Origin: Marinilongibacter aquaticus | Lineage (GTDB): Bacteria > Bacteroidota > Bacteroidia > Cytophagales > Spirosomataceae | Assembly (NCBI RefSeq): GCF_020149935.1 | Contig: NZ_CP083757.1 | Coordinates: 1,550,001 to 1,614,000 of the forward strand | Direction of reading: 5' to 3' | DNA length: 64,000 bases | Shown: positions 3,869 to 13,101 of the stretch, one piece after another | Layout of the letters: every line of letters begins with the position of its first letter | How positions within the stretch are numbered: the stretch's first letter is position 1 | Position numbers and translations under genes: made by a program | The notes under the pieces: model-generated | What the model saw: the letters and a program-made list of their open reading frames with translations, nothing else | Told to the model about the DNA's origin: nothing | Database searches by the model: none

Positions 3869-4456
3869 TTACAACAAAACCACAAAACTCTTGATCACAG
3901 AAACCAAGCGGATAGCGTCGAAAATACGGGCCTCAGTACCGCCGTGCGATTTCACCGACGCTTCGTGCGAAGTCACGCATTGTTCGCAACCGTTCAAAGC
4001 CGAAACACCCAGGCTGAGCAATTCGAAAAACTCTTTACCCAAAACAGGTTTCATCATCACAGACATACGAATACCTGCGGGCATATTTTGGTAGTTCTCG
4101 TTTTTGTGCATGAAATGGCGGAAACGGTAGAATACATTGTTGGCATTCATCAAAGAAACGCAAGCGGCCACTTCGTTGATTTCTTCGTCTGTCGCCTCTT
4201 GAGCACGGGCCATTTCTTCCAAAGCTTGCGTCAAGACTGCTGATTTCTCGTTAATCGCCACAGCCAAGGCCATCAACAAGGCTTCTTTGGGGCTCAAAAC
4301 TTCCGACTTCAGCACATTGCCCACATTGATTTTCAAGTCTTTCAAAAAGCGGGTATCCGCAGCATTGTGTGCATCAATCCATTTGCTTCCCAAGTTTTCG
4401 TCCAAATTCAACGACTCAAACAAGCTTTTTTTCGTATTAGCGGCTAATCCTATCAT
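3869..4456 (-). CDS. ahpD: Alkylhydroperoxidase AhpD (carboxymuconolactone decarboxylase family)
   Basis: This 195-aa protein carries the AhpD active-site signature CEQCVTSHE, with Cys157, Cys160 and His164. Glu145 lies 12 residues before the first cysteine, the same spacing as the proton-relay Glu and the CxxC of mycobacterial AhpD. In the family AhpD reduces oxidised AhpC through its CxxC and is itself recharged by a lipoamide-type system. It lies directly downstream of ahpC on the same strand, with 69 bp between them, and shares its promoter. A strong hairpin in that gap may set the ratio of the two messages. Length is slightly above the usual 175-180 aa. The assignment is secure from motif and neighbour. 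Confidence 0.93.
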   Translation of the reverse strand: MIGLAANTKKSLFESLNLDENLGSKWIDAHNAADTRFLKDLKINVGNVLKSEVLSPKEALLMALAVAINEKSAVLTQALEEMARAQEATDEEINEVAACVSLMNANNVFYRFRHFMHKNENYQNMPAGIRMSVMMKPVLGKEFFELLSLGVSALNGCEQCVTSHEASVKSHGGTEARIFDAIRLVSVIKSFVVLL

Positions 4457-4474
4457 GTGTTATTTCTTTAAGAA

Positions 4475-4496
4475 TCAGGCGGCCGAAGCCGCCTGA
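4475..4496 (-). other. Intercistronic C(UUCG)G hairpin between ahpC and ahpD
   Basis: On the minus-strand RNA this is a 9-bp perfect stem, TCAGGCGGC/GCCGCCTGA, closed by a UUCG tetraloop. No good T-run follows, so it is more likely a partial attenuator or an mRNA-stabilising processing structure that leaves ahpC better expressed than ahpD. Confidence 0.7.
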
Positions 4497-4525
4497 AAAT
4501 TCATAATTTGTGTCTTTAAAATTGA

Positions 4526-5068
4526 TTAAACGCTAAGCGTTTCTTCACCTTTTTTCCAGTTACAAGGACAAAGTTCGTCTGTTTGAAGAGCGTCCAGTAC
4601 ACGCAACACTTCGTCTACGTTACGGCCTACAGAAAGGTCGTTTGCAGAAACCCAACGGATTACACCCTGAGGATCTACGATGTAGGTCACACGGTAAGCG
4701 ATTTTCTCGTTTTCTTCCAAAATACCCAATTCTTCAGCCAAAGATTTTGAAGTATCGGCCAGCATAGGAAACTGAAGACCTTTCAAATCTTCGTGATGTT
4801 GTCTCCAAGCCAAGTGCACGAATTCTGAATCCGTAGATGCACCGATCAACACGGCATCACGATCTGCAAAATCTTCTACTTTCGCGTTGAAAGCGGCGAT
4901 TTCTGTAGGGCACACAAATGTGAAATCTTTTGGCCACCAGAACATCACCATCCATTTGTCGGCGTTTTTGTGGTCTTCAGAAGTAATATCGTAGAATTCG
5001 CTTCCTTTTTCAAGAGAAACTACTGATGTTTTTTTAAACTCTGGGAATTGTTTTCCTAATCCTAACAT
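4526..5068 (-). CDS. ahpC: Peroxiredoxin AhpC (alkyl hydroperoxide reductase C)
   Basis: This 180-aa 2-Cys peroxiredoxin has the peroxidatic cysteine in DFTFVCPTEI (Cys53) and C-terminal resolving cysteines in ELCPCNWKKG (Cys167, Cys169). The extra C-terminal cysteine is typical of AhpCs that work with AhpD rather than AhpF, which agrees with ahpD being the next gene. The enzyme reduces hydrogen peroxide, alkyl hydroperoxides and peroxynitrite in the cytoplasm. The gene is divergent from an OxyR homologue 170 bp away, so peroxide-inducible expression is expected. The start at 5068 is the only ATG that preserves the conserved N-terminus. Confidence 0.96.
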   Translation of the reverse strand: MLGLGKQFPEFKKTSVVSLEKGSEFYDITSEDHKNADKWMVMFWWPKDFTFVCPTEIAAFNAKVEDFADRDAVLIGASTDSEFVHLAWRQHHEDLKGLQFPMLADTSKSLAEELGILEENEKIAYRVTYIVDPQGVIRWVSANDLSVGRNVDEVLRVLDALQTDELCPCNWKKGEETLSV

Positions 5069-5116
5069 AATTCAAATTTTAAAATTAAATATTAAAATAA
5101 TCCAATTTTTATTCTT

Positions 5117-5153
5117 ATTATTTCAAAAATACTTCTGTTATACTTGAAATAAT
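5117..5153. promoter_or_regulatory. Inverted repeat, candidate OxyR operator
   Basis: A perfect 10-bp inverted repeat (ATTATTTCAA at 5117-5126, TTGAAATAAT at 5144-5153) with a 17-bp spacer lies in the AT-rich gap between divergent ahpC and oxyR. It is 49 bp upstream of the ahpC start. A minus-strand TATTTTTG (5124-5131), fitting the -7 element, overlaps the left arm. Binding by OxyR is inferred from position only. Confidence 0.5.
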
Positions 5154-5238
5154 TAAATATCTGATGCAAAAATGCAGCTTTGAGATATAATTGTCAAATA
5201 TAATTTCCTTATCATTGTATAATTTATACTTATACTAA

Positions 5239-6177
5239 ATGACACTCAATCAAATAAGCTATATAGAAGCCGTGGCTCGCCGGGGAAATTTCTCGAAAGC
5301 CGCCGAAGAATGCTGTGTTTCGCAACCCGCTCTCAGCATGCAGGTCAGGCAATTGGAGGATGAATTGGGCATGAAAATTTTCGACCGCGGGAAAAACGCC
5401 ATCCGACCCACGCCCAATGGCCAAGCCTTTATCAAACAGGCCAGAGCCGTATTGCTCGAAGTGGCCAAACTGAAAGAGATCGCCCACTTGAACCAAGAGC
5501 AGGTGGCCGGAAAAGTATCTGTGGGTATCATTCCCACCATTGCCCCCTACCTGCTGCCTTTGTTTATCCAAGCCTATACGCAGCAGTTCCCTGAAATCGA
5601 ATTGGATATACGCGAACTCACCACAGATGAAATCACTCAGCAAATTCTCGATTTCAAATTGGACATCGGAATTTTAGCCACTCCGCTCGAAATAGAAGAC
5701 CTGATCGAAGTGCCCCTTTTTTATGAACCCATGCTGGCCTATGTAAGTCCTCATTCGTCGATATACAACAAATCATTCGCCCTGCCGCACGAGATCAATC
5801 CCAATGAACTTTGGCTTTTGGAAGAAGGGCATTGCCTCCGCTCCCAGATTCTCAAGCTTTGCGAACTGAAACAACAAACGAACCTGAACCCGCAGATCAC
5901 TTTTCAGGCGGGCAGTATAGAAACCTTGATCCGCTTGGTCGATAAATACCAGGGCATCACCATTCTACCCGAACTGGCCACACTCGAGCTGCCAAAAGAG
6001 GCTTTGAAAAAAGTACGCAAATTTGCCGAGCCCGAGCCGCAACGCGAGGTAAGCCTTGTGCATCATGCCTATTTCAACAGAATTGCCGTTACCGAAAGCT
6101 TACGCAGCACTATTTTGAGCAAACTCCCCAAACATTTCCTGCAAAATCAAAAGAGCAATACACTTAAGCCCAAATAA
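5239..6177 (+). CDS. oxyR: Hydrogen peroxide-sensing LysR-type regulator OxyR
   Basis: This 312-aa LysR-family protein has an N-terminal winged HTH (residues about 1-60, with NFSKAAEECCVSQPALS as the recognition region) and a substrate-binding-like sensor domain. The sensor contains EEGHCLRSQILKLC, placing Cys199 and Cys208 at the same positions as the redox pair of E. coli OxyR. That strongly supports a true OxyR that forms an intramolecular disulfide on peroxide exposure. It is divergent from ahpC-ahpD, its expected main target. Extra cysteines occur in the HTH (Cys25, Cys26). It is followed by a hairpin shared with the convergent channel gene. Confidence 0.93.
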   Translation: MTLNQISYIEAVARRGNFSKAAEECCVSQPALSMQVRQLEDELGMKIFDRGKNAIRPTPNGQAFIKQARAVLLEVAKLKEIAHLNQEQVAGKVSVGIIPTIAPYLLPLFIQAYTQQFPEIELDIRELTTDEITQQILDFKLDIGILATPLEIEDLIEVPLFYEPMLAYVSPHSSIYNKSFALPHEINPNELWLLEEGHCLRSQILKLCELKQQTNLNPQITFQAGSIETLIRLVDKYQGITILPELATLELPKEALKKVRKFAEPEPQREVSLVHHAYFNRIAVTESLRSTILSKLPKHFLQNQKSNTLKPK

Positions 6178-7564: not shown

Positions 7565-7601
7565 ATTTAGGATTTATTCCTAAATATTGGATTAATTCCA
7601 A
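7565..7601 (+). promoter_or_regulatory. Twin palindromic operator of the dinB-dnaE cassette
   Basis: Two tandem palindromes share the core GGATTWATTCC: a longer one at 7565-7585 (TTAGGA-N5-TCCTAA with flanking AT pairs) and one at 7587-7601 (TTGGA-N5-TCCAA). Their centres, 7575 and 7594, are 19 bp apart, close to two helical turns. The second palindrome covers the -33 TTG of the promoter, so a bound dimer would block transcription. A LexA-type or S24-family SOS repressor is the likely ligand by analogy; none is encoded nearby. Confidence 0.75.
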
Positions 7602-7617
7602 AATCAATTTACTTTTG
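7587..7617 (+). promoter_or_regulatory. Promoter of dinB-dnaE
   Basis: A Bacteroidota-type promoter: TTG at 7587-7589, 20-bp spacer, TACTTTTG at 7610-7617. The predicted start point falls at about 7622, which is the A of the dinB ATG, so the transcript is probably leaderless or nearly so. Confidence 0.7.
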
Positions 7618-7621
7618 ACAC

Positions 7622-8857
7622 ATGGATCGTACCATCTTGCACATGGATCTCGACACCTTCTTTGTGTCGGTAGAGCGGAAATTAGACAGCCGCCTGATAG
7701 GCAAACCCATACTCATCGGTGGAACCGGCGACCGAGGCGTGGTGTCTGCCGCCAGCTACGAAGCCCGCCCGCGGGTACAATCGGGCATGCCCATGAAATT
7801 GGCCCGTATGCTCTGCCCCGAAGCCATCGTGATCAAGGGCAATGCAGGCGTTTATACCGACCATTCACGCATTGTCACCGAAATCATCAAAGCACGTGTA
7901 CCCATCCTAGAAAAAGCCAGCGTAGATGAATTCTATGCCGACCTCTCGGGAATGGATAAGCATTTCGGCTGTGCAAAATACGCGTCCGAACTTCGGGAAA
8001 TCGTAAAAAAAGAAAGCGGTTTGCCTATCTCTTTCGGGCTTTCGATCAACAAGACAGTGGCCAAAGTGGCCACCAGCGAAATGAAGTCCAAAAGGCAAAC
8101 ACAGGGCAGCGACGAAGGCCTACTGAATGTAGAACGAGGACAAGAAAAACCCTTTCTTGCTCCATTGGCCGTAAAAAAAATCCCTATGGTAGGCGACAAA
8201 ACCTACCAAACGCTTTGCAACCTCGGCATAAAATGGGTGAAAAATGTGCAAGAATTGCCACTCGAAGTAATCAGTTCTGTTTTGGGCAAAAACGGGCACA
8301 CACTTTGGGAAAAGGCCAATGCCATAGATTATAGCCCCGTAATTGAGTATCACGAACGGAAATCGATCTCGAACGAAAGAACTTTCGGCAAAGATACCAC
8401 CGACATGCACAAGCTTCGCACCACCATCGAAGCCATGGCCGAACAATTGTGTTTTCAATTGCGGAGTGGCGGGAAAATCGCCAGCTGCATCAGCGTGCGT
8501 ATACGGTACTCCGATTTCCAAACCACCTCGAAACAGACAAAGATTGCCTACTCATCGGCCGATCACATCATGATCCCAAAAGTCTTGGAACTCTTCGAAA
8601 GCCTTTACAACAGACGGCTGCTGGTACGCTTGGTGGGGGTCAAGTTCAGCGACATCACCAATGGAAGCTATCAAATCAACCTTTTTGAAGACAGCCGGAA
8701 AACAGCCGACTTGTATGCGGGCATGGATAAAGTACGAAACAAATATGGCTCTCGGGCCATCATGCGGGCCTCTACATTTGGAGCCAAAACCATCGGCGGC
8801 ATGATGAACCCCTTCAATGGCGAACCGCCCATTGTACTGGCTCACCGAACGGGCTAA
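7622..8857 (+). CDS. dinB: Y-family DNA polymerase IV (DinB)
   Basis: This 411-aa translesion polymerase has the first catalytic Asp and steric-gate aromatics in ILHMDLDTFFVSVE, and the second acidic pair in SVDEFYADLSG (usual form SIDEAYLD). The palm and fingers are followed by HhH segments (KKIPMVGDKTYQTLCNLGI) and the little-finger domain. The length is ordinary for bacterial Pol IV but no clear C-terminal beta-clamp motif stands out. It is the first gene of a two-gene damage-tolerance cassette with a second dnaE starting 46 bp downstream. The promoter overlaps a twin palindromic operator, so damage-inducible repression is expected. Confidence 0.95.
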   Translation: MDRTILHMDLDTFFVSVERKLDSRLIGKPILIGGTGDRGVVSAASYEARPRVQSGMPMKLARMLCPEAIVIKGNAGVYTDHSRIVTEIIKARVPILEKASVDEFYADLSGMDKHFGCAKYASELREIVKKESGLPISFGLSINKTVAKVATSEMKSKRQTQGSDEGLLNVERGQEKPFLAPLAVKKIPMVGDKTYQTLCNLGIKWVKNVQELPLEVISSVLGKNGHTLWEKANAIDYSPVIEYHERKSISNERTFGKDTTDMHKLRTTIEAMAEQLCFQLRSGGKIASCISVRIRYSDFQTTSKQTKIAYSSADHIMIPKVLELFESLYNRRLLVRLVGVKFSDITNGSYQINLFEDSRKTADLYAGMDKVRNKYGSRAIMRASTFGAKTIGGMMNPFNGEPPIVLAHRTG

Positions 8858-8903
8858 TTGCAAACCCAAAAACAGCCTTGAAAACCTAGAATGTATTTTA
8901 AAA

Positions 8904-11900
8904 ATGTACCTCAATTGCCATACGTATTTCAGTCTCCGTTACGGCACTTTTTCGGAAGAAGAACTGCTTAAATTGGCCGCAGAAAACGGGCAAAAAACAC
9001 TTGCACTCACCGATATCAACAATACCTCTGCCTGTTTGAATTTCGTGCGGACAGCTCCAAAATACGGCATAAAACCGGTATTGGGCGTCGATTTCAGAAA
9101 CGGCAACACACAGCTCTTTGTGGGCGTGGCCAAAAACAATCGGGGTTTTCAAGAACTGAACGCACACCTCTCGTTTCACAAGCATGCCCACACAAAACTT
9201 CCTGAAAAAGCTCCAGCTTTTCAGCAAGTGCAGGTAATTTACCCGCTTTCCCAGCTACAAAATCGAGGCCAAACCACTCTACTCTCCCACGAATACATCG
9301 GCGTGGGTTTAGACGAACTCGAATACCTACACCGATCGCCCCATTTCGAACATTTACACAAAATGGTTTTCCTGCATGCGGTGACTTTCCGAAACAAAGT
9401 CGACTTCAACCTGCACCGCCTGCTGCGGGCCATCGACAACAATGAACTACTCAGCCGTTTGCCGAACAGCGAACAGGGCCATCCGGAAGAAAAATTCATA
9501 GACGAATCCGTCTTGTCCAAGGCTTTTGAGCAATATCCCTTAATTCTTGAGAATACCCGCAGACTGCTGGACGCGTGCCACATCCATTTCGATTTCAACG
9601 AAAACCGCCCGCACCAAAACCTGTTGAGCTATACAGGGGAACGGAAAAAAGACTATCGGCTCATACAGAAACTTGTGCGAGAAGGCCTGAGCAAACGCTA
9701 CGGACCACAAATCGGATTCAGTATAAAAAGGCGGGTTATCAAAGAGCTGAAAACCATTTCGCAAATGGATTACGTGGCTTTCTTTCTGGTCAATTGGGAT
9801 ATCATACAATACGCCAAAAGTAAAGGGTACTTTCATGTGGGCCGCGGCAGTGGAGCCAACAGCATTGTGGCCTATTTGTTGGGCATTACCGATGTAGACC
9901 CCATCGAACTCGATCTGTATTTCGAACGCTTCATGAACCTTTACCGGGCCAATCCGCCCGATTTTGACATCGATTTTTCTTCGAAAGACCGCGACGACAT
10001 CACCCGCTACATCTTCGAGCGTTTCGGTAAAAATAAGCAAGTTGCTTTGCTGGCCACCTACAATACTTTTCAATACAGTGCAGCCGTGCGTGAGCTGGGA
10101 AAGGTTTTTGGTTTGCCCAAAGACGAGATCGACACACTGAGCGACGGAAAATACGACCCGCAAAAGCTAGACAAACTTTCGCAGCTGGTTATACAATACG
10201 CCCACAGGCTAAACGGCATACCCAATATTCTGAGCGTACATTCCAGTGGCATTATCATATCGGAAAAATCGCTCCATTATTTCTCGGCCACAGACATGCC
10301 GCCCAAAGGTTTCCCCACGGTGCAATTCGACATGGTGATAGCCGAAGATGTAGGCCTTTACAAATACGATATCCTGGGGCAACGCGGCCTCGGGAAAATC
10401 AAAGACAGCTTGGCCATTATTCAGGAAAACAGGCCCGAAGCACCGCACATCGACATTCACAATGCCCAGGCTTTCCTTAAAGACAAGGCCATTAACGAGC
10501 AAATCAGCAAAGCCCAATGCATTGGCTGTTTTTATGTAGAATCGCCCGCCATGCGGATGTTGCTGCGAAAACTGGAAGTGGACAATTATTTGGGTTTGGT
10601 GGCGGCCAGTTCAATTATTCGTCCGGGAGTAGCCAAAAGCGGCATGATGCGAGAATACATTCTGCGGCACCGCGACCCCAAACGCCGCGAGGAGGCTCAT
10701 CCAAAAATGATAGAAATCATGAATGACACCTATGGTGTGATGGTGTACCAAGAAGACGTGATCAAAGTAGCTCATTATTTTGCAGGCCTTTCACTGGCCG
10801 AAGCCGATCAGTTGCGTAGGGGCATGAGCGGAAAATACCGATCGCGGGAAGAATTTGCCAAAGTAAAACGGAAATTCATTCAAAACTGCCGCGATCGCGG
10901 CGAAGAAGAGAAAACAATCCAAGAAGTCTGGAATCAGACCGAAAGCTTCGCAGGCTATGCTTTTGCCAAGGGTCATTCTGCATCTTATGCGATTGAAAGC
11001 TACCAGAGCCTTTTCCTTAAAACCTACTATCCGCTCGAGTTCATGGTGGCGGTATTGAACAATGGCGGCGGTTTTTACCGCACCGAACTCTACGTACACG
11101 AAGCCCGTATGCAAGGCGGCCTATTGCACGCTCCCCAAATCAACCTCTCGAGGGTAGAAACCATTATTCGTGGCCAACACATATACCTGGGTTTCCAGCA
11201 CTTGGCCGGTCTCGAAAGCCATTTGGCCCTACAGATCGTGGCCGAACGCCAAAAAAACGGGGCATTCCTTAGTCTTGCCGATTTTCTGGAAAGGATCGAC
11301 ATCGCACCCGACCAGATGGAAATCCTGCTCCGCATCGGTTCGTTCGATTTTACAGGCATAAACAAACGCGAGCTGCTCTGGCAAGCCTTGTACAAACTCA
11401 ACAAAGAGCCCAAAAGAAAACAGAGCGAACTCTTCAAAGTCGCGGTCAAGCAATACGATTTGCCCAAGCTCAGCTCCACGTTTTTCGAAGACACTTTCGA
11501 CCAAATGGAACTTCTGGGTTTTCCGCTTTGCAACCCTTTCGACCTGCTTTTGGAAAAGCCTGAAAATACACTTGCCGCAAAAGACATGCCCCATTTTGTC
11601 AACCGAGAAATGACGATTTACGCTTATCTCATCACCATAAAAAACACCTCGACCAGCAGAGGAAGCCGCATGCAATTCGGTACGTTTCTGGATCACGAAG
11701 GGCATTGGGTCGACACCGTCCACTTTCCGCCCGTAGCGGCCAAATTCCCCTTTCGCGGAAAGGGCGTATACCAACTCACGGGCATTGTCAAAGAAGAATT
11801 TGATTTTTATACCCTCGAGATCGCCCACATGCAACAAATACCCTACATTCCCGATCCAAGGTTCAACACAGACAGCAAAGTAGATTACGATCTCGCCCTA

Positions 11901-11972
11901 AAAAGAGCAAACACGCCATTCAGGAAACTGAACAATGCCGAACTTTATAGAAAGCGACCCGCGGCAAAATAA
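8904..11972 (+). CDS. dnaE: DNA polymerase III alpha subunit, short DnaE of the translesion cassette
   Basis: About 1022 aa from the ATG at 8904, chosen because MYLNCHTYFSLRYGTFS is the normal PHP-domain start and the longer frame would overlap dinB. The PHP domain spans roughly residues 1-200. The C-family polymerase core carries NPPDFDIDF, with Asp353, Asp355 and Asp357 as the likely metal-binding acidic cluster. Fingers and helix-hairpin-helix regions follow (ADFLERIDIAPDQMEILLRIG), then an OB-like tail. It is much shorter than the replicative Bacteroidota DnaE, and its place behind dinB fits an error-prone DnaE2/ImuC-like role in damage tolerance. No imuA or imuB partner is in the window. 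It could still be a general gap-filling polymerase. Confidence 0.92.
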   Translation: MYLNCHTYFSLRYGTFSEEELLKLAAENGQKTLALTDINNTSACLNFVRTAPKYGIKPVLGVDFRNGNTQLFVGVAKNNRGFQELNAHLSFHKHAHTKLPEKAPAFQQVQVIYPLSQLQNRGQTTLLSHEYIGVGLDELEYLHRSPHFEHLHKMVFLHAVTFRNKVDFNLHRLLRAIDNNELLSRLPNSEQGHPEEKFIDESVLSKAFEQYPLILENTRRLLDACHIHFDFNENRPHQNLLSYTGERKKDYRLIQKLVREGLSKRYGPQIGFSIKRRVIKELKTISQMDYVAFFLVNWDIIQYAKSKGYFHVGRGSGANSIVAYLLGITDVDPIELDLYFERFMNLYRANPPDFDIDFSSKDRDDITRYIFERFGKNKQVALLATYNTFQYSAAVRELGKVFGLPKDEIDTLSDGKYDPQKLDKLSQLVIQYAHRLNGIPNILSVHSSGIIISEKSLHYFSATDMPPKGFPTVQFDMVIAEDVGLYKYDILGQRGLGKIKDSLAIIQENRPEAPHIDIHNAQAFLKDKAINEQISKAQCIGCFYVESPAMRMLLRKLEVDNYLGLVAASSIIRPGVAKSGMMREYILRHRDPKRREEAHPKMIEIMNDTYGVMVYQEDVIKVAHYFAGLSLAEADQLRRGMSGKYRSREEFAKVKRKFIQNCRDRGEEEKTIQEVWNQTESFAGYAFAKGHSASYAIESYQSLFLKTYYPLEFMVAVLNNGGGFYRTELYVHEARMQGGLLHAPQINLSRVETIIRGQHIYLGFQHLAGLESHLALQIVAERQKNGAFLSLADFLERIDIAPDQMEILLRIGSFDFTGINKRELLWQALYKLNKEPKRKQSELFKVAVKQYDLPKLSSTFFEDTFDQMELLGFPLCNPFDLLLEKPENTLAAKDMPHFVNREMTIYAYLITIKNTSTSRGSRMQFGTFLDHEGHWVDTVHFPPVAAKFPFRGKGVYQLTGIVKEEFDFYTLEIAHMQQIPYIPDPRFNTDSKVDYDLALKRANTPFRKLNNAELYRKRPAAK

Positions 11973-12507: not shown

Positions 12508-13101
12508 ATGAAATTGGACTCTTCGTTTTATCCGCAATTCAATACACTCGAAATGGCCAGTAAATTGCTGGGGAAAATTCTGGTACACGAAACGCCAGAA
12601 GGGGTTACAAGCGGCCGAATTGTGGAAACCGAAGCCTACCTCTGCACGGATCCCGCATGCCACGCCTTCACGGGAAAAAGCAAACGAAACCAGAGTATGT
12701 TTCTCGCAGCCGGACATGCCTATGTGTATTTCATTTACGGAATGTACACCTGCTTCAACGTTGTTTCTGGCCCTGAAAATACAGGTGAAGCTGTGCTCAT
12801 TCGGGCATTGGAACCCTTAAAGGGGCTTACCTTGATGCACGAAAGAAGGGCCCGTTTATCCAAATCGAATAAACCTTTTCTGAGCAAAGGCCTCTGCAAT
12901 GGCCCGGGGAAACTCTGCCAAGCCATGGGCATCGACCTGAGCACGGACGGCAAGCCTCTTCATGGCGATTCCATTTGCCTTTTCGACGATCACTTTGATC
13001 GTTTTCAAACCATGCAAACTACCCGAATCGGCATCACCAAAGGACATACGCTCCCTTATCGTTTCTACATCAAAGACAACAAATTCATCAGTAAATCGTA
13101 A
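12508..13101 (+). CDS. DNA-3-methyladenine glycosylase (AAG/MPG family)
   Basis: This 197-aa protein matches the AAG/MPG family along its whole length: TSGRIVETEAYL contains the catalytic Glu, YVYFIYGMYTCFNVV the central strand with substrate-binding tyrosines, and GPGKLCQAMGI the conserved GPGKL motif. It excises alkylated bases such as 3-methyladenine and hypoxanthine in base-excision repair. It lies 29 bp upstream of the Xaa-Pro aminopeptidase gene on the same strand and is probably co-transcribed with it. The start ATG at 12508 gives the normal length. Confidence 0.94.
   Translation: MKLDSSFYPQFNTLEMASKLLGKILVHETPEGVTSGRIVETEAYLCTDPACHAFTGKSKRNQSMFLAAGHAYVYFIYGMYTCFNVVSGPENTGEAVLIRALEPLKGLTLMHERRARLSKSNKPFLSKGLCNGPGKLCQAMGIDLSTDGKPLHGDSICLFDDHFDRFQTMQTTRIGITKGHTLPYRFYIKDNKFISKS

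What the first reader, a model, noticed from the sequence alone, without database searches (positions are those of the whole stretch)
7565..7624. Twin GGATTWATTCC palindromes over the dinB-dnaE promoter with a leaderless start
Two palindromes with the same 11-bp core, 19 bp apart between centres, lie at the promoter; the second covers the -33 TTG. The promoter spacing puts the start of transcription on the dinB ATG. This looks like a dedicated SOS-type operator of unknown repressor, in a cassette that lacks an adjacent lexA, imuA or imuB.
Basis: partly seen in the sequence, partly recalled or inferred. Interest (0 to 1): 0.7.

Follow-up and report, generated by a model that had tools for sequence, protein, structure and literature searches.

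The report
Twin SOS operators before dinB-dnaE
Two matching DNA palindromes in front of the error-prone polymerase genes dinB-dnaE are almost certainly docking sites for this bacterium's DNA-damage (SOS) repressor, a kind already described in related bacteria; what looks new is that such sites come as pairs at a set distance and that the repressor seems to have replaced the one its closest relatives use.

Summary
In detail: two perfect palindromes, GGATTTATTCC (7570-7580) and GGATTAATTCC (7589-7599), 19 bp apart, over the dinB-dnaE promoter. They are not operators of an unknown repressor. GGA-N5-TCC is the published SOS box of one group of Bacteroidetes 'non-canonical LexA' (PMC8565304), whose main target is dinB with dnaE. 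The only S24/HTH repressor found in this genome with intact cleavage residues belongs to that group; it lies 1.53 Mb away, and its promoter holds the only other exact twin in the 4.64-Mb genome, with the same 19-bp spacing. The -7 box fits a start on the ATG for dinB and, imperfectly, for the repressor gene. Two points go beyond what I read of that paper. (1) The 19-bp pairing recurs: 33 of 33 Dyadobacter-like genomes have exact twins, and all 18 AT-rich twins that a partial pattern found in 13 Flavobacteriaceae genomes sit beside DNA-damage genes. (2) The five nearest relatives have closely related dinB but another S24 clade and no GGA site before dinB (two have CTAA-N5-TTAG), so repressor and operators appear to have changed together. 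Binding, induction and the 5' end are untested.

The parts
7570..7580 (.). Operator 1, GGATTTATTCC (with flanks TTTAGGATTTATTCCTAAA), a GGA-N5-TCC SOS box
   Evidence: motif from PMC8565304.
7589..7599 (.). Operator 2, GGATTAATTCC, 19 bp from operator 1; its first base is the G of the -33 TTG and it lies in the promoter spacer
   Evidence: 19-bp spacing in relatives.
7587..7589 (+). TTG of the -33 element, 20 bp before the -7 box
   Evidence: Sequence; TTTG at about -33 is given as the B. fragilis consensus in PMC7366714 (passage), which also says the motif was not found in F. johnsoniae.
7610..7617 (+). TACTTTTG, -7 box (TAnnTTTG), at -12 to -5 from the dinB ATG; predicts a start on the ATG
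   Evidence: register from PMC9723704 (passage).
7622..8857 (+). dinB (Y-family polymerase, 411 aa)
   Evidence: Pfam IMS 5.8e-37 and IMS_C 3.3e-26; best NCBIfam matches are DNA polymerase IV models, none over its curated cut-off.
8817..11972 (+). dnaE-type polymerase subunit, second gene of the likely operon; listed ORF starts at 8817, but relatives suggest the ATG at 8904 (MYLNCHTYFSLRYG)
   Evidence: Pfam DNA_pol3_alpha 1.2e-62; TIGR00594 over its cut-off; dnaE starts in relatives.

Best explanation
[quoted passage not shown] Two repressor dimers, probably touching, sit 19 bp apart over the -33 element and the spacer and keep RNA polymerase off the dinB-dnaE promoter. After DNA damage, RecA filaments trigger self-cleavage at Ala103-Gly104, the dimers fall off, and dinB-dnaE (and the repressor gene, from its own 19-bp twin) are made. 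Shown here: the sites, the spacing, group membership by tree and residues, the second twin at the repressor gene, the twin before dinB in relatives. From the literature on other members: specific binding and mitomycin C induction. Inferred: binding and cleavage in this species, cooperativity, start of transcription on the ATG.
For: Exact twin at 2 places in the genome, the dinB and S24 promoters, control 0. Same layout at both: 19-bp spacing, proximal site ending 22 or 23 bp before the ATG, a TAnnTTT box at -12. Pfam S24 and HTH_3; the Ala-Gly site and Ser-Lys pair invariant in 31 of 31 group members aligned. The tree puts the repressor in the GGA clade, 100/100. GGA-N5-TCC lies within 250 bp before the repressor gene in 80 of 80 named relatives kept, 217 sites against a resampled mean of 3.3, maximum 8. 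Twin 19 bp apart before dinB in 3 of 3 Dyadobacter-like genomes of the order sample. 33 of 33 such genomes in the family sample have 1-5 exact twins, 95 in all against 6 control matches. 18 of 18 AT-rich 19-bp twins from 10 of 13 Flavobacteriaceae genomes lie beside DNA-damage genes. Gel shifts with mutated sites and RT-qPCR on other members in PMC8565304.
Against: No binding or induction data for this species. The five closest genomes have no GGA site in the 200 bp before dinB, so conservation skips them. No other SOS gene was seen with a twin here, so the circuit may be only two loci. A wider single-site pattern finds 25 places against 12 controls; 4 are the twins, and 5 of the rest lie outside open frames and were not ruled out as targets. 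Of 20 hand-picked Dyadobacter twins away from dinB only 2 border a gene known for SOS control. The published reference proteins were not in my tree.
Confidence: 0.9

Rival explanations
1. A different, unknown repressor, dedicated to dinB-dnaE, binds the pair.
For: No SOS regulator gene lies next to the cassette.
Against: The only other exact twin in the genome is in front of the S24 repressor gene, with the same spacing and nearly the same distance to the start; in 7 Dyadobacter loci and one each of Gillisia and a Saprospiraceae MAG the repressor gene lies beside a divergent dinB.
Confidence: 0.04
2. The second S24-like protein of the genome (C1:1066373-1067041, 262 aa) is the regulator.
For: It matches the relatives' S24 repressor over its length at 26%.
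Against: It lacks the Ala-Gly site and the GDSM serine and has no GGA or CTAA palindrome in the 250 bp before it; the Pfam S24 model did not report it.
Confidence: 0.03
3. Chance palindromes, or a promoter feature with no repressor.
For: The 11-bp core alone occurs 12 times in the genome, mostly in genes.
Against: Exact twin only twice, control 0; the same geometry at SOS genes of another family.
Confidence: 0.02
4. On the evolutionary point: no transfer. Both S24 types were ancestral and the window's lineage kept the GGA type while its relatives kept the other.
For: PMC8565304 reports that a significant number of Flavobacteriaceae species carry both groups. The window protein is a long branch, 47% identical at best over its length (51% over 215 residues).
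Against: In the five closest genomes the best match to the GGA-type profile A2 scores only 78-86 bits and is the other S24 clade, so repeated loss would be needed. Further weak S24 matches in those genomes were not examined.
Confidence: 0.3

Closest known systems
Non-canonical LexA of Bacteroidetes, GGA-N5-TCC group (PMC8565304; Salegentibacter agarivorans WP_075324850.1)
   Same: Motif, S24 plus CI-like HTH repressor, cleavage residues, motif in its own promoter, dinB with dnaE as target.
   Different: Reported primarily in Flavobacteriaceae, with Cytophagaceae homologues unassigned; here in a genome of the family that holds Dyadobacter, with only two exact twins. A fixed 19-bp tandem spacing is not mentioned in the parts I read, which do say that several promoters have two or more sites.
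CTAA-N5-TTAG group of the same family
   Same: Same kind of repressor and same kind of target; probably the type used by the closest relatives (two of five have the exact motif before dinB).
   Different: Separate clade (100/100), different motif; the relatives' protein was not found in this genome.
Phage lambda CI and its operators (operator geometry recalled; structures)
   Same: All-helical N-terminal domain in the model, S24 domain, operators in arrays about two turns apart between divergent genes in Dyadobacter.
   Different: Chromosomal, controls repair genes; extra C-terminal helix; fixed 5-bp spacer within each site.
Canonical LexA (E. coli)
   Same: Function, cleavage chemistry, several boxes at some promoters (PMC11332147, passage).
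   Different: Winged-helix DNA-binding domain and CTGT-N8-ACAG box (PMC8565304).

Membership tests
Non-canonical LexA, GGA-N5-TCC group | S24 peptidase domain plus phage-type HTH (PF01381) | tested here: met
   PF00717 2.3e-12, PF01381 5e-07, both over their cut-offs.
Non-canonical LexA, GGA-N5-TCC group | Ala-Gly cleavage site and Ser-Lys dyad | tested here: met
   A103-G104, S142, K181 of the 249-aa protein invariant in 12 of 12; the same residues, numbered one lower, in 31 of 31.
Non-canonical LexA, GGA-N5-TCC group | GGA-N5-TCC in its own promoter | tested here: met
   GGAATTATTCC and GGATATATTCC, 19 bp apart.
Non-canonical LexA, GGA-N5-TCC group | Clusters with the group in a protein tree | tested here: met
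   In one clade with Flavobacteriaceae and Dyadobacter proteins, 100/100; every named member has the motif upstream. Published reference proteins not included.
Non-canonical LexA, GGA-N5-TCC group | CI-like all-helical N-terminal domain and an extra C-terminal helix | tested here: met
   Prediction only: AlphaFold model with five helices and no strand of 3 or more residues in 1-62, and helix 231-247. Mean pLDDT 70, pTM 0.45; the C-terminal helix region is at 55-59 and residues 74-130 are under 50.
Non-canonical LexA, GGA-N5-TCC group | Specific binding of the motif and mitomycin C induction of targets | not testable with these tools
   Bench work only.
Canonical LexA | LexA winged-helix DNA-binding domain | tested here: not met
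   Pfam finds HTH_3 and no LexA DNA-binding model at E <= 0.001.
imuA-imuB-dnaE2 cassette | imuA and an imuB beside dnaE2 | tested here: not met
   Adjacency only: a DinB-type gene precedes dnaE, a mechanosensitive-channel and a LysR gene lie upstream, the next identified gene downstream is a DNA glycosylase. imuA and imuB were not searched for elsewhere in the genome.

The most novel reading that the evidence does not exclude
A natural swap of an SOS circuit inside one genus. A GGA-type repressor with a phased, CI-like operator array entered a lineage whose relatives use another S24 group (CTAA-N5-TTAG type); the old repressor was lost; and the vertically inherited dinB gained a promoter with the matching 19-bp twin and an ATG at the start of the message. 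The 19-bp pair would be the real recognition unit of this repressor group, read by two touching dimers, rather than the single box.
Probability: 0.55. Interest if true: 0.6.

Novelty: new member of a known kind. Interest (0 to 1): 0.42.

Why it matters
The operator itself is an expected member of a described system. Two by-products are worth more. A 19-bp twin box is a far sharper genome signature than the single GGA-N5-TCC box, which is too short to search for reliably, and it suggests cooperative, CI-like reading that can be tested directly. And a species that differs from its own genus in both SOS repressor and operators is a test case for how a global regulator is replaced, a question PMC8565304 raises about motif divergence.

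Tried and rejected
Unknown dedicated repressor: rejected once the same twin was found before the S24 gene. Single 11-bp core as a regulon marker: rejected, 8 of the 10 copies outside this promoter lie inside ORFs of 184 aa or more. A wider single-site pattern gave 25 places (control 12): 4 in the two twins; of the other 21, 20 were checked by script, 15 of them inside an open frame of 150 aa or more and 5 (L274, L277, L278, L283, L292) in none of 90 aa or more; the last, C1:4445973, is the site of L012, inside an ORF. The genes beside those 5 were not identified.

A two-locus regulon is not proven: that pattern asks for an A/T-only spacer, and the two one-mismatch twins (L016, L017) were not studied.

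A first script to read dinB promoters used the wrong orientation and was replaced. In some searches the window repressor sits on a long branch beside a Saprospiraceae protein; its place within the GGA clade differs between the two trees, and I rest nothing on it. One clade of window plus Dyadobacter alone was rejected (p 0.0082), with long branches in play. Two rows with over-long proteins were left out of the first tree; the second uses 52 hand-chosen rows of 110, with four over-long ones left out.

The pattern began GGAA, so pairs without GGAA at either outer end were missed. 'AT-rich' means at least 9 A or T in the 10 spacer bases. Whether the dinB and repressor promoters are copies of one another I judged only by eye; outside the operators I saw no clear likeness.

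Literature: searches. 'Dyadobacter' with 'LexA' and 'SOS response' gave 0 papers. In PMC8565304 I read Results in full, the first of two Discussion parts and passages, no supplements; that the 19-bp spacing is unreported is claimed only for those. Of PMC9723704, PMC7366714 and PMC11332147 I saw passages. Lambda operator geometry is recalled.

Full report
What is there. The window (G000:C1:1550001-1614000, one contig of 4.64 Mb) has GGATTTATTCC at 7570-7580 and GGATTAATTCC at 7589-7599, 19 bp apart, between a mechanosensitive-channel gene on the other strand and dinB-dnaE. TTG at 7587-7589 and TACTTTTG at 7610-7617, 20 bp apart, fit the Bacteroidota promoter consensus. TACTTTTG lies at -12 to -5 from the dinB ATG. 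In Flavobacterium psychrophilum the sigma-A box is placed at -12 to -5 from the mapped start, and leaderless mRNAs are 5.5% of those examined (PMC9723704, passages). The reading that the message starts on the ATG is therefore sound as a prediction. In the nearest relatives the same kind of box lies far upstream of dinB (-71, -74, -67 and -103 in four genomes; none found in the fifth).

Beyond chance. The window holds 11 GGA-N5-TCC places, only these 2 with an all-A/T middle. The exact twin GGA-N5-TCC-N8-GGA-N5-TCC occurs at two places in the genome, with no exact control match; with one mismatch allowed there are 4 places against 3 control places. The second exact place is the promoter of an S24/HTH protein of 249 aa, 1.53 Mb away: GGAATTATTCC and GGATATATTCC, again 19 bp apart, the proximal site ending 23 bp (22 for dinB) before the ATG, with an imperfect box, TAAATTTA, at -12. 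The repressor gene converges on an rRNA operon, its stop 70 bp from the 5S gene.

What it is. Sanchez-Osuna et al. 2021 (PMC8565304; Results and part of the Discussion read) described two groups of S24 repressors that run the SOS response in Bacteroidetes, binding GGA-N5-TCC or CTAA-N5-TTAG. The GGA network is dominated by dinB, often with the polymerase III alpha gene; binding was shown by gel shift with mutated sites and induction by mitomycin C in a representative species. They place the GGA group primarily in Flavobacteriaceae and could not assign the Cytophagaceae homologues. The repressor here has Pfam S24 and HTH_3 domains, the invariant Ala-Gly site and Ser-Lys pair, and falls in a clade of 41 rows, mostly Flavobacteriaceae and Dyadobacter, with 100/100 support (in the quick tree of 108 rows the same clade of 82 rows has 100). 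All 80 named loci kept by the scan have at least one GGA-N5-TCC within 250 bp of the repressor start and 72 have two or more; 217 sites against a mean of 3.3 in first-order resampling. An AlphaFold model (mean pLDDT 70, pTM 0.45) has a helical N-terminal domain and a low-confidence C-terminal helix like the one the paper describes; Foldseek's best matches are LexA structures, with lambda repressor among them, aligned well over the S24 domain only.

The spacing rule. In the repressor promoters, 118 of 137 adjacent spacings are 18, 19, 22 or 23 bp; these promoters share ancestry, so this alone proves little. Genome-wide, a pattern with gaps of 3 to 24 bases found, among AT-rich pairs, 23 of 39 at exactly 19 bp in Dyadobacter-like genomes (listed rows only) and 18 of 49 in 13 Flavobacteriaceae genomes; the next peaks, 22 bp (9 of 39) and 23 bp (10 of 49), with 18 bp (6 of 49), are largely the repressor promoters. 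Among the GC-richer pairs 19 bp is not special: 4 of 79 and 2 of 36; the commonest there in Dyadobacter is 18 bp, 11 of 79, some of them near-identical sequences in several genomes. I fetched all 18 AT-rich 19-bp twins of the Flavobacteriaceae set, which come from 10 of the 13 genomes (the 2 GC-richer ones were not fetched): 8 lie before dinB, 5 before a radical-SAM gene, 2 before a DnaQ-type exonuclease, and one each before an SRAP gene, a umuD-like gene and a dnaE. That the radical-SAM gene is the paper's SplB homologue is my inference; Pfam says only radical SAM.

In the family sample of 200 genomes, 33 of 33 of genus g5 have 1 to 5 exact twins, 95 in all against 6 in controls; some of the 95 are GC-rich and probably chance. 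Of the other 166 besides G000, 34 have one or more, 44 matches against 26 controls by my count from the table, and the 10 of these genomes whose sites are listed show GC-rich ones. g5 is taken to be Dyadobacter because its repressors fall among named Dyadobacter proteins; NCBI places that genus in Spirosomataceae, Cytophagales, so the window's genome, in the same family, very likely belongs there too. The g5 twins lie between dinB and the repressor gene and between umuD and SRAP, but also beside genes with no known SOS role. Nineteen base pairs is 1.8 turns, about 70 degrees short of the same face; that neighbouring dimers touch, as in lambda CI, is my inference.

The exchange. The two same-genus genomes of the sample (G162, G184) and three more of the family (G164, G157, G174) have dinB 71-79% identical to the window's. 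In a tree of 32 DinB proteins the window's groups with three of them at 99/97, with four at 100/99 and with all five at 100/100, apart from Dyadobacter. None of the five has a GGA site in the 200 bp before dinB; G184 and G164 have an exact CTAA-N5-TTAG there, the other three only looser TTAGC/GCTAA elements. Their S24 proteins (79-86% identical to that of G162) form a different clade (100/100). This protein was not found in the window's genome, where the same query hits only the GGA-type repressor and a second S24-like protein that lacks the cleavage residues. So dinB went with its lineage while its operators and the repressor differ together. The genes next to dinB differ among these genomes, so the promoter may have changed when the cassette moved. 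Transfer followed by loss is the simplest account; retention of two ancestral types is the rival and is not excluded.

Results against. No experiment touches this species. The twin is missing before dinB in its nearest kin. No twin was seen before other SOS genes here, so the circuit may be small; 5 single sites outside open frames remain unexplained. Only 2 of 20 hand-picked Dyadobacter twins away from dinB border a gene known for SOS control. The place of the repressor within its clade is unstable.

Verdict. Ordinary in kind and already explained as an operator; of moderate interest for the 19-bp rule and the exchange within a genus.

Noticed in passing
L097, L103, L106, L208, L209, L214, L216, L217 (L219 and L222 repeat L097 and L103): In Dyadobacter-like genomes, 8 distinct loci (10 of 40 scanned) have a conserved protein of about 48-71 aa (motif M-V/I-W-I/L-WYYD) that starts 45-49 bp from the centre of a 19-bp SOS twin in 7 of 8 (the eighth has an inner ATG in that range). 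No Pfam match at E <= 0.1 for two members. A possible unnamed SOS-induced small protein.
   Followed up: partly
G000:C1:1066373-1067041 (L273): A second S24-like protein with an HTH-like N-terminus whose peptidase part lacks the Ala-Gly site and the catalytic serine.
   Followed up: partly
L266:8137-9068: The repressor gene converges on an rRNA operon, 70 bp from the 5S gene.
   Followed up: no
window 8817-8904: The dnaE ORF as listed overlaps dinB; relatives start at MYLNCH, i.e. the ATG at 8904.
   Followed up: partly
window 12508-13101: A methylpurine-DNA glycosylase gene (Pfam 1.3e-64) lies downstream of dnaE, with no A/T-centred GGA-N5-TCC box.
   Followed up: partly
window 3869-6177: AhpC-type peroxiredoxin and a CMD-family (AhpD-like) gene divergent from a LysR-type regulator: looks like an OxyR peroxide-stress cluster.
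   Followed up: partly
L090, L098, L215, L220 (L225 repeats L098): A GDSL-hydrolase-like gene follows a 19-bp twin in several Dyadobacter-like genomes; Pfam run on two of them, one over and one just under the cut-off, the others by likeness.
   Followed up: partly
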